This document shows, piece after piece, positions 1,944-62,162 of a stretch of 64,000 nt of DNA (position 1 is the stretch's first letter; each line of letters starts with the position of its first letter). The notes under the pieces were generated by a model, which saw only the letters and a program-made list of their open reading frames with translations, searched no databases and was not told the origin of the DNA. This DNA comes from Lachnospiraceae bacterium (GTDB lineage Bacteria > Bacillota > Clostridia > Lachnospirales > Lachnospiraceae): NCBI GenBank assembly GCA_017479935.1, contig JAFVBO010000118.1, forward strand, positions 62,001 through 126,000, given 5' to 3'. Both the position numbers and the translations under genes were made by a program.

Positions 1944-2125
1944 GCAAATGACCTGCTATGTCATTGTGATTCAATACGTAAATAAGCCTGCCAAGATGTT
2001 TGTCAGGCGTAGGCATTAGCTTGTTTGTGGGTCTTGCCTGCGTTTTCCAGACCTTCAATGGTGCAGCACGGCGACCTGAGACATAGCCAAGTCCATGAAC
2101 ACGTGCTATATTTGCGCAATAGCTT

Positions 2126-2482
2126 GTCAAAAAGTGGCTGAGGCAGCAATAGAGCCAGTTGCTGTCATGCATGAGGAGGCCCTAGGCGTCGGCGGAGAAT
2201 TTCCAGGCAGATGGTGGGAGCAAGGGGAAAGTACCACTTATGGCAGCGAAGCCCTGCACTTCCGCGAAATCGTGGTATTTCAGCTACCGCGATTTCAGGG
2301 GCACTAAGAGGAACACCGTCATCAGACGGGGTTCCGAAATGTGCCCCGGCGGATGTGCAGGGCTTCGCTGTCGTTAGTGGTACTACCCGAAGATCCCATA
2401 TCTGCCGGAAATCTTCCCGACGTTTAAGGCCTCCTTACGCATGACCACAACAACTTGATCGCTGCCTCGGCCACTTTTTGAC
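2126..2482. repeat. Multibranched structured repeat, copy A
   Basis: Nearly the whole 357-bp segment folds onto itself. The outer stem pairs 2126-2138 with 2470-2482 and 2140-2147 with 2461-2468. The middle stem pairs GGAGGCC (2175-2181) with 2428-2434 and 2199-2212 with 2399-2411. An inner stem pairs 2231-2259 with 2355-2383. The head carries two hairpins: 2266-2277 with 2285-2296, and 2298-2304 with 2341-2347 enclosing 2310-2335. The core recurs at 61899-62162 with paired substitutions. It fills the gap between the carboxypeptidase gene and the next promoter. It could encode a structured RNA or be a non-autonomous mobile element. No protein reading is credible. Confidence 0.8.
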
Positions 2483-2550
2483 GGGGTACCTGACCGGGAA
2501 GATAACAATGACATAGCAGATCACAGGCAAGAAGAAATAGATTTTCGGTA

Positions 2551-2579
2551 TTGTTTGGGGCGGGCAGATGGGTTATACT
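2551..2579 (+). promoter_or_regulatory. Sigma-A promoter for the 2TM protein gene
   Basis: TTGTTT at 2551-2556 and TATACT at 2574-2579 are separated by exactly 17 bp, 52 bp before the start codon at 2631. Confidence 0.65.
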
Positions 2580-22623: not shown

Positions 22624-22710
22624 AATTTCTGACAGGGGACGGGCCTGTGTCACAAAAGCTGACAGCCGTCAGCTTTTGTGACACAGACCCGTCCCATGTC
22701 AGAAATTTTT
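22624..22710. terminator. 84-nt near-perfect palindrome, bidirectional terminator-like
   Basis: Arms of about 40 nt (AATTTCTGACA at 22624-22634 down to GCTGAC at 22658-22663, matched by GTCAGC at 22668 up to TGTCAGAAATT at 22707) surround AGCC. A T-run follows on the plus strand and an A/T-rich run on the other side. It separates the convergent TIR operon and the dehydrogenase gene. It is far longer than an ordinary terminator and may be a MITE-like palindrome. Confidence 0.75.
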
Positions 22711-34332: not shown

Positions 34333-34602
34333 AAGTTTCCGCGGCCTCCTTTTTGTCGATTGCATTCTTTTTGGACTCATGATGAAAGTGTTTCTACTCG
34401 GCCAATATACCACAATCCCCTCTGCGCGAAAAGTGCTTTCCCACATTTCCTTATGACAACCCGCTACAATAATGATCTGCCATGTCATTCCTGCACAGAG
34501 CGTCAATAAACGAGCCGGAGTCAGAGATATATCGTTCGCAGTCTAAGTTCCCCCGGCCTGATATCCTCTTGCTTTTTAAGCTGCCCCTTTGGACACTGCG
34601 AC

Positions 34603-45218: not shown

Positions 45219-45358
45219 TTGAACGCCCCCTTTTTTCGTCACTTTATACAATATCACAGGGCGAGTTAAAAATCAACCAATTCACAAGGGTAAGAAAAGG
45301 CATTTTTATTATTGAGTTGCCGCGATATAATACACCTAGTAAAAAAAGAGGAGGAAAA

Positions 45359-45889
45359 ATGATGAGTATAGAGCTACTTTCTATGAAGATGGCAGCGGAA
45401 AAGGGCAGGAGTGAATGCGTTGCGTACGCAAAAAGCGTCGGTGCGCCGACAGGAGAGCATTTTATAGTGCCACGGGAAGGCAAAAAGCCCGTGGAGGTCT
45501 ACATATACCGCCCGGAGAAATTTGGGGTGCTGCCCTGTGTTTTCAACGTACATGGCGGGGCGTGGGTAGGCAATGATGCCCTTTACCTCGATACCCAGAG
45601 CCGCCTCATGGCTGAGAGACTTGGCGCAGTGGTAGTGAATATCAATTATACAAAGGCTGATGTGATGCCGTTTCCATATCAGCAGTATGAAGTTGCGGAC
45701 ACGGTGAAATACTTTATTCGCAATGCGGAAAGGTTCAACGTAGATAGTAACCGTCTGGCGCTTATGGGTTATTCTGCAGGCGGACATCTCTGCGCGGCAG
45801 CCGGGCAAATGCTGAATCGGGAGGGCGTAAAGCTCTCGGCGCTGGATTATCAGACGCGGATCGCAGTATCTATCGATACCCGCTCTTAA
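45359..45889 (+). pseudogene. Truncated HSL-type esterase
   Basis: A 176-aa frame with the oxyanion HGGAWVG and the nucleophile motif GYSAGGH. It stops about 20 residues after AGG..AAGQMLN, where intact relatives continue another 100 or more residues with the acid and base of the triad, which are missing here. It is preceded by GAGGAGG and a possible -10 TATAAT at 45326-45331. It marks the right end of the decayed island. The following 206 bp hold no gene. Confidence 0.75.
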
Positions 45890-46095
45890 CAATGACATGG
45901 CAGCTCATTGTCTACAGAAAATGTGCAGAATGCACAAAAAGCTGATGGCGAATGTGATAAAGATAGGCTTGTATTTTTGCATAACTCATTTTAAAATGTA
46001 TAAAGAGATTTCCATGAGGGGCGGAAATCCCATTTTACAAGGAAAAACAAAATGTTTTCCGAGTGTATATCCAATGTTTGGAGGGTTGTAAAGAA

Positions 46096-61617: not shown

Positions 61618-61850
61618 GCATGCACGGGAAACAAGCAATTTTAGTGCAATCCCCATGCAAAACAATAGCTTCCGGAGTCCGAGATGCATGGGGAACGAGC
61701 AATTTTAGTGCAATCCCCATGCAAATCAAAAGCTTCCGGGTTCTGAAATGCATGGGGAACAAGCAATTTTAGTGCAATCCCCATGCAAGCCAAAAGCTTC
61801 CGGAGTCTGAGATGCATGGGGTTCAAGCATTTTTAGCCAATTCCCCATGC
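61618..61850. repeat. 64-bp tandem hairpin satellite, about 3.5 units
   Basis: Units begin at 61618, 61686, 61750 and 61814, the last one partial. Each contains an 8-bp inverted repeat GCATGGGG...CCCCATGC around about 21 bp with AGCAATTTTAGTGCAAT, then a linker with AGCTTCCGG. In the first unit the left arm is altered to GCATGCACGGG, and the last unit changes several bases. The linkers are conserved, unlike CRISPR spacers. No frame in it is credible as a gene. Confidence 0.85.
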
Positions 61851-61898
61851 AATCAAGAAACAAGAGGTCAGGCTATGTGTGAAATCAGAAGACTAAAA

Positions 61899-62162
61899 GT
61901 GAATTGGGCCTAAGGCGGCGGGGAGATTTTCCGGCAGCATGTGGGAGCAAGGGGATAATGCCACTTATGGCAGCAAAGCGTCGCACTGACGAGAAATTGC
62001 GGTACCACAAGTACCGCAATTTCAGGGGTATCTGAGGAACACCGTCATCAGACGGGGTTTCGAATGTACCCCGGCGGCTGTGCGACGCTTTGCTGGCATT
62101 AGTGGCACTCCCCGAAGATCCCTTTGCTGCCGGAAAACTCCTCCGCCGCCTTAGGCCTTCAC
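61899..62162. repeat. Multibranched structured repeat, copy B
   Basis: A 264-nt segment homologous to the core of the copy at 2126-2482, in the same orientation. The outer stem is 61899-61921 with 62143-62162. The second stem pairs ATGCCACTTATGGCAGC and what follows to 61985 with 62081-62109. A hairpin joins 61993-62004 and 62012-62023; another pairs GGGGTAT with GTACCCC. A 25-nt block at 62035-62059 is identical to 2309-2333. Several stem base pairs differ from copy A by paired changes. It lies between the satellite and the promoter of the aldo/keto reductase. Confidence 0.8.

What the first reader, a model, noticed from the sequence alone, without database searches (positions are those of the whole stretch)
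2126..2482. Two-copy multibranched structured repeat with compensatory base changes
The segment at 2126-2482 and the one at 61899-62162 share a common fold: a long basal stem, an internal loop (GTGGGAGCAAGGGG opposite CCCGAAGATCCC), a second stem, then two apical hairpins. Between copies, paired positions change together. In the second stem AGCGAAGCCCTGCAC/GTGCAGGGCTTCGCT becomes AGCAAAGCGTCGCAC/GTGCGACGCTTTGCT. In the first apical hairpin a C-G pair becomes T-A, and GGGGCAC/GTGCCCC becomes GGGGTAT/GTACCCC. Loops and a 25-nt block are conserved. Selection on base pairing implies a functional RNA, or a DNA hairpin recognised by a protein. I cannot match it to a class I know.
Basis: partly seen in the sequence, partly recalled or inferred. 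Interest (0 to 1): 0.85.

Follow-up and report, generated by a model that had tools for sequence, protein, structure and literature searches.

The report
Giant palindromic repeat upstream of promoters
A gut-type bacterium carries about 25 copies of a non-coding DNA element, roughly 0.5-0.9 kb when complete, that folds into long branched hairpins, keeps its pairing by matched mutations on both arms, and sits almost always just upstream of a gene's promoter; it matches no catalogued family and probably spread as a mobile palindrome.

Summary
The segment is one of about 25 dispersed copies (plus fragments) in this genome, probably a Lachnospiraceae. Pairing is kept by real covariation: 20 of 57 core pairs change on both sides, with 0 of 500 shuffles as high. 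The three most diverged copies rebuild apical stems around a fixed CCGTCATCAGACGG. In the better-preserved copies the unit is larger: an outer stem (window 1949-1970 / 2502-2523) closes the reported hairpin "A" and, in about ten copies, a second long hairpin "B" (units 539-925 bp). B belongs to a family-wide class of long hairpins sharing one apical loop. A was not found in any other genome searched (sensitivity limited), in Rfam, or in the phage, plasmid and viral collections. Copies are intergenic, almost absent between convergent genes, and usually end just before a co-directional promoter. No coding gene, target-site duplication or transposase partner was found; the genome's RAYT transposases have unrelated repeats. 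Best reading: a lineage-specific, non-autonomous palindromic mobile element selected for folding as single-stranded or cruciform DNA. A structured RNA, or a supercoiling-responsive cruciform acting in cis, remains possible. New variant of a known kind (REP/ERIC/MITE-like); mechanism unproven.

The parts
1949..2523 (+). whole unit in this copy (575 bp): outer stem, remnant of hairpin B, hairpin A
   Evidence: outer inverted repeat I3; same boundaries in 8 copies; two similar copies (C71, C54) lose similarity at these ends
1949..1970 (+). outer stem P1, 5' strand TGACCTGCTATGTCATTGTGAT
   Evidence: 91% complementary to 2502-2523; covaries among 8 copies (copies chosen by own match, so biased)
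1971..2060 (+). probable remnant of hairpin B (base only: GTAAATAAGCCTGCC...GGCATTAGCTTGTTTG); full B is absent from this copy
   Evidence: read from sequence against full B copies; inference
2126..2482 (+). hairpin A: basal stem, conserved internal loop, second stem, two apical hairpins
2126..2150 (+). basal stem 5' arm (pairs with 2458-2482)
   Evidence: own partner fits better than other copies' partner, 0/5000 permutations
2230..2265 (+). second stem 5' arm (pairs with 2349-2384)
   Evidence: 14 of 25 pairs with both-side changes (helix 1)
2266..2296 (+). apical hairpin 1 (GAAATCGTGGTA...TACCGCGATTTC)
   Evidence: helix 3: 5 of 13 pairs with both-side changes, 99% of cells paired; coordinates
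2310..2335 (+). apical hairpin 2 (GGAACACCGTCATCAGACGGGGTTCC); loop and inner stem fixed, outer stem rebuilt in diverged copies
   Evidence: (helix 5)
2502..2523 (+). outer stem P1, 3' strand ATAACAATGACATAGCAGATCA
2549..2577 (+). probable promoter of the downstream gene (TTGTTT-17-TATACT), just past the unit, not part of it; coordinates approximate
   Evidence: (matched motif), position read; plus-strand best score exceeds minus-strand score across 25 copies, p=6e-5
61907..62157 (+). second window copy of hairpin A, without P1 and outermost basal stem
61993..62023 (+). apical hairpin 1 of second copy
62036..62061 (+). apical hairpin 2 of second copy
34472..34561 (+). truncated relative: P1 5' strand plus 5' arm of hairpin B
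   Evidence: (C20:96501-96561)
45885..45908 (-). solitary P1 end at the 3' end of a short alpha/beta-hydrolase-like ORF
   Evidence: (C20:107885-107908)

Best explanation
It is a lineage-specific, non-coding, dispersed palindromic element (MITE-like). The unit, 539-925 bp in eight measured copies, is an outer 17-24 bp stem enclosing hairpin A and often a second hairpin B. Shown: multicopy dispersal, unit boundaries in several copies, paired changes in the stems, fixed loop and inner stem of one hairpin, intergenic placement just upstream of promoters. Inferred: copies spread by a recombinase or transposase acting in trans on the folded single strand or on a cruciform extruded where negative supercoiling is high (upstream of promoters, between divergent genes). 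Selection, or hairpin-templated repair, keeps the arms complementary because unfolded copies cannot move; the fixed CCGTCATCAGACGG hairpin is then the likely contact site.
For: 25 core copies plus fragments in one genome at unrelated loci. Two similar copies share sequence from P1 to P1 and nothing clear outside. P1-bounded units of 539-925 bp in 8 copies. Covariation beyond shuffles; own arms fit each other better than other copies' arms; stems rebuilt around a fixed core in the diverged copies. Lineage-restricted. The groEL-guaB gap is 1,096 bp with two A copies here but 186 bp in one relative, G036. Folds strongly as DNA too (z = -20). No overall strand bias in wobble pairs. Convergent gaps depleted, 2 of 36 v 20 of 77, p=0.011. 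B's apex is TGTTTGAGCGNAGCGAGTT, varying at N (A, C, T), which matches the GNA DNA minihairpin d(GCGNAGC) (GNA minihairpins cited in PMC6479982). A solitary P1 end lies in an ORF.
Against: No transposase or recombinase partner found; the genome's two long Y1 (RAYT-like) transposases are flanked by different repeats. No target-site duplication (p=0.22). No same-species empty site could be examined. Copies are old (median pairwise identity 75%), so present activity is not shown. The core, unlike the arms, shows a plus-strand wobble excess, which a symmetric cruciform does not predict (a single DNA strand or an RNA would).
Confidence: 0.5

Rival explanations
1. A multicopy structured non-coding RNA: the plus strand is transcribed and folds as drawn; the loops bind a protein or ligand.
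For: Strong covariation; fixed loops and internal loop; plus-strand wobble excess in the core and the core's plus strand more stable in 24 of 25 copies.
Against: No promoter consistently in or ahead of A; in the 11 divergent settings no upstream gene could drive it; no overall strand bias; no Rfam match; about 25 diverged paralogues in one genome and none found in relatives is unusual for an RNA gene.
Confidence: 0.2
2. A cis-acting DNA element: the palindrome extrudes a cruciform under the negative supercoiling behind promoters and buffers or senses it, or is bound as a cruciform by a protein, insulating or tuning the adjacent promoter.
For: Placed directly upstream of co-directional promoters (p=6e-5); co-directional downstream gene in 20 of 23; depleted between convergent genes; cruciform-capable inverted repeats are enriched in E. 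coli promoter regions (PMC6060812).
Against: Only tandem settings are informative for orientation and give 9 v 2, p=0.065; downstream genes look unrelated; insertion preference explains the same placement.
Confidence: 0.2
3. Neutral fossils: old palindromic repeats whose arms stay complementary through template switching (quasipalindrome correction), without selection.
For: Both strands behave alike over the arms; patchy truncated copies exist.
Against: Conserved mismatched internal loops and a fixed apical sequence amid diverged stems would be erased or randomised by such correction.
Confidence: 0.1

Closest known systems
REP / BIME / REPIN repeats with RAYT (TnpA-REP) transposases
   Same: dispersed, intergenic, non-coding, hairpin-forming, lineage-specific families
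   Different: REPs are 20-40 bp with GTAG or CGTC tags, lie mainly downstream of genes and between unidirectional or convergent genes (PMC3733652); this unit is more than 10 times longer, sits upstream of promoters, and this genome's RAYT-like genes carry other repeats
ERIC/RU-type enterobacterial repeats and bacterial MITEs
   Same: non-autonomous, intergenic, mobile-like; described as MITE-like (PMC2759123)
   Different: 127, 168 or 103 bp and enterobacterial; no nested second hairpin; sequence relation was not tested
PATE / IS200-IS605-derived miniature elements (own knowledge)
   Same: hairpins recognised as single-stranded DNA, no target-site duplication
   Different: short end hairpins; no A, B or P1 sequence found next to the Y1 genes examined here
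Large ornate bacterial RNAs (OLE, ROOL, GOLLD)
   Same: hundreds of nucleotides, multibranched, covariation-supported
   Different: no Rfam match here; dozens of diverged copies at unrelated loci of one genome
Long hairpins with the apical loop AACTCGCTTCGCTCAAACA (seen here in 24 of 299 genera of the family; I found no publication)
   Same: hairpin B of this unit is one of them; long imperfect stems, conserved apex
   Different: hairpin A has two apical hairpins with other sequences and was found only in this genome

Membership tests
REP/REPIN (RAYT-associated) | 20-40 bp palindrome with GTAG or CGTC tag | tested here: not met
   unit 539-925 bp, no such tag at its P1 ends
REP/REPIN (RAYT-associated) | same repeat flanks the genome's RAYT gene | tested here: not met
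   two RAYT-like genes flanked by GGGGACGG-type repeats; no A/B/P1 match beyond chance-level words
MITE (DNA transposon derivative) | terminal inverted repeats, no coding capacity, many dispersed copies | tested here: met
MITE (DNA transposon derivative) | target-site duplication | tested here: not met
   flank words no longer than shuffled, p=0.22
MITE (DNA transposon derivative) | autonomous partner with the same ends | tested here: inconclusive
   P1 pattern search gave known copies and fragments, no transposase noticed; not every transposase family was scanned; draft genome of 139 contigs
Structured ncRNA gene | covarying base pairs | tested here: met
Structured ncRNA gene | strand-specific wobble pairing | tested here: inconclusive
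Structured ncRNA gene | own promoter and transcript | tested here: inconclusive
   no consistent promoter by consensus scan; transcript not testable here
Known Rfam family | score above gathering threshold | tested here: not met

The most novel reading that the evidence does not exclude
A genome-wide set of large, structure-conserved DNA cruciforms placed between and just upstream of promoters, acting as supercoiling sensors or insulators (or, alternatively, an undescribed multicopy structured RNA class), of which hairpin B's GCGNAGC-tipped class is the family-wide version.
Probability: 0.2. Interest if true: 0.8.

Novelty: new variant of a known kind. Interest (0 to 1): 0.52.

Why it matters
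Bacterial palindromic repeats are usually short. A composite of about 0.5-0.9 kb with nested, covarying hairpins, at roughly 25 sites directly upstream of promoters, would be an unusual case of selection on folding of non-coding DNA. It gives a concrete test of whether such elements move as folded single strands, tune promoters through supercoiling, or are RNAs. The shared apical loop of hairpin B across 24 genera suggests an undescribed class of long hairpins in a major gut family.

Tried and rejected
Rfam at gathering and relaxed thresholds: nothing. Relatives by DNA and by covariance model over about 400 genomes each at family, order and class level: only the own genome; caution, only 7 candidates were scored per genome. 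GTDB pattern scans: none with the exact motif, 2 chance hits with the relaxed one. Viral, plasmid and phage collections: none or chance. My first inference of a strong GU over AC bias was rejected as an artefact of choosing pairs on one strand and replaced by the mixed result. RAYT as partner: rejected. An apparent run of ~450-aa neighbours of B-type hairpins was an artefact of locus length. guaB as a shared hot spot with genus G123: the other neighbour differs. Literature: no paper found with the apex sequence or on such repeats in this group.

Full report
Observation. A genome search with the first copy gave dozens of matches, and a covariance model of the core (R1) found 25 full-core copies on many contigs; weaker matches to the opposite strand of the same places reflect the palindrome. 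Rfam has no match.

Covariation. On 22 aligned copies, 20 of 57 pairs have at least one both-side change and 97.4% of cells pair; no shuffle of 500 reaches either value and sliding the partner by one base drops pairing to 36%. Each copy's arms fit each other better than other copies' arms: 0 of 5000 permutations for the basal stem (13 copies) and for the second stem (25 copies). The three most diverged copies rebuild the second apical hairpin: GGAACACCGTCATCAGACGGGGTTCC becomes GGCCCCCGTCATCAGACGGGGGCC, GGCTCCCGTCATCAGACGGGGGCC, and in C126 TTCACGCCCCGTCATCAGGACGGGGCGTGA. So the loop and inner stem are fixed (one base is inserted in C126) and the outer stem is kept by paired change.

Strand. 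I first read as a strong GU over AC excess, which would point to RNA. That was biased, because the pairs had been chosen by plus-strand folding. Folding both strands of every copy gives 165 GU pairs on plus and 161 on minus. Split by region, the core gives 63 v 34 and the arms 102 v 127. Parsimony on a tree of the copies, with pairs taken from both strands, gives 85 double changes, 67 steps to GU and 32 to AC. The core therefore leans to the plus strand, the arms do not. This is compatible with an RNA or with one DNA strand folding, and does not settle the matter.

Anatomy. Upstream of A, about ten copies carry a second long hairpin B; B copies and fragments number several dozen in the genome. 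An outer stem P1 (consensus about TGAYCTGNCATGTCATTRTTATC) closes B plus A; in the window it is 1949-1970 / 2502-2523. Two similar copies (C71, C54) share sequence from P1 to P1 and diverge outside. Eight copies measure 539-925 bp between P1 ends. P1 also covaries, but those copies were selected by their own match, so that test is biased. Flanks show no target-site duplication. The window copy keeps P1 and A but only the base of B.

Hairpin B. Its apical loop AACTCGCTTCGCTCAAACA occurs in 24 of 299 genera of the family, in most sampled cases at the tip of a long imperfect hairpin with unrelated stem sequence. Near-matches vary almost only at one loop base and one flanking base; on the other strand this is TGTTTGAGCGNAGCGAGTT with N = A, C or T. 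That is the d(GCGNAGC) type of GNA DNA minihairpin, an exceptionally stable DNA fold (GNA and d(GCGAAGC) work cited in PMC6479982; that the tip forms here is my inference). It points to folding as DNA for B.

Setting. Copies are intergenic. For A, 11 lie between divergent genes, 9 in tandem regions pointing to the next gene, 2 the other way, 1 between convergent genes. Orientation is informative only in tandem regions (9 v 2, p = 0.065). Gaps with A or B are rarely convergent: 2 of 36, against 20 of 77 without (p = 0.011, from a home-made gene caller). A promoter-like site in the same direction follows A: best plus-strand score 9.36 on average against 7.70 on the minus strand and 7.74 in the 200 nt upstream (p = 6e-5 and 4e-4), while the score inside A is 7.48. 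Downstream sequences are not shared between copies, so these look like the genes' own promoters. The downstream genes look unrelated to one another (names would be my reading of the sequences).

Distribution. No other genome matched A: 60 relatives by DNA, about 400 genomes each at family, order and class level by model, GTDB species by pattern, viral contigs, phages and plasmids. Limits: only seven candidates per genome were scored in the large model searches, no other genome of the same genus was held, and near relatives may be left out of the contig collections. At groEL-guaB this genome has 1,096 bp holding two A copies, while one relative (G036) with the same neighbours has 186 bp; other relatives mostly have an extra small gene there.

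Partner. Nine Y1-transposase matches exist. The two long RAYT-like ones are flanked by GGGGACGG-type repeats unrelated to A, B or P1. B-type hairpins occur in genomes with no Y1 match (G235, G285, G123). No partner is known.

Conclusion. The evidence supports a lineage-specific palindromic composite maintained in folded form. I judge a mobile, non-autonomous DNA element most likely (0.5), with RNA (0.2), a cis-acting cruciform (0.2) and neutral fossils (0.1) as rivals. Mobility, transcription and function are all unproven.

Noticed in passing
window 61620-61852: Three 64-nt tandem repeats (ATGCATGGGG...), a separate repeat family; similar arrays lie on the 5' side of at least three other A copies (C1, C139:46317, C28).
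   Followed up: partly
window 22624-22707: A 40-bp near-perfect hairpin (GACAGGGGACGGGCCTGTGTCAC), resembling the repeats that flank this genome's RAYT-like gene at C87.
   Followed up: partly
L162-L191 (other genera): Family-wide class of very long imperfect hairpins sharing the apical loop AACTCGCTTCGCTCAAACA (GCGNAGC on the other strand), with recurrent CTAA near bulges; no publication found.
   Followed up: partly
window 45317-45908: A short alpha/beta-hydrolase-like ORF ends in a solitary P1 end of the element, as if truncated by it.
   Followed up: partly
L098 (C57), L090 (C21), L100 (C71): Hairpin B apex carries an extra ~119-nt insert (GGAGCGGAGCACTTAGCGCC...GTGCCCGGTGC) absent from other copies: a nested element.
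   Followed up: no
L092 10243 and 10697; L099 3523 and 3898: Pairs of A copies lie back to back in opposite orientation in one intergenic region.
   Followed up: partly
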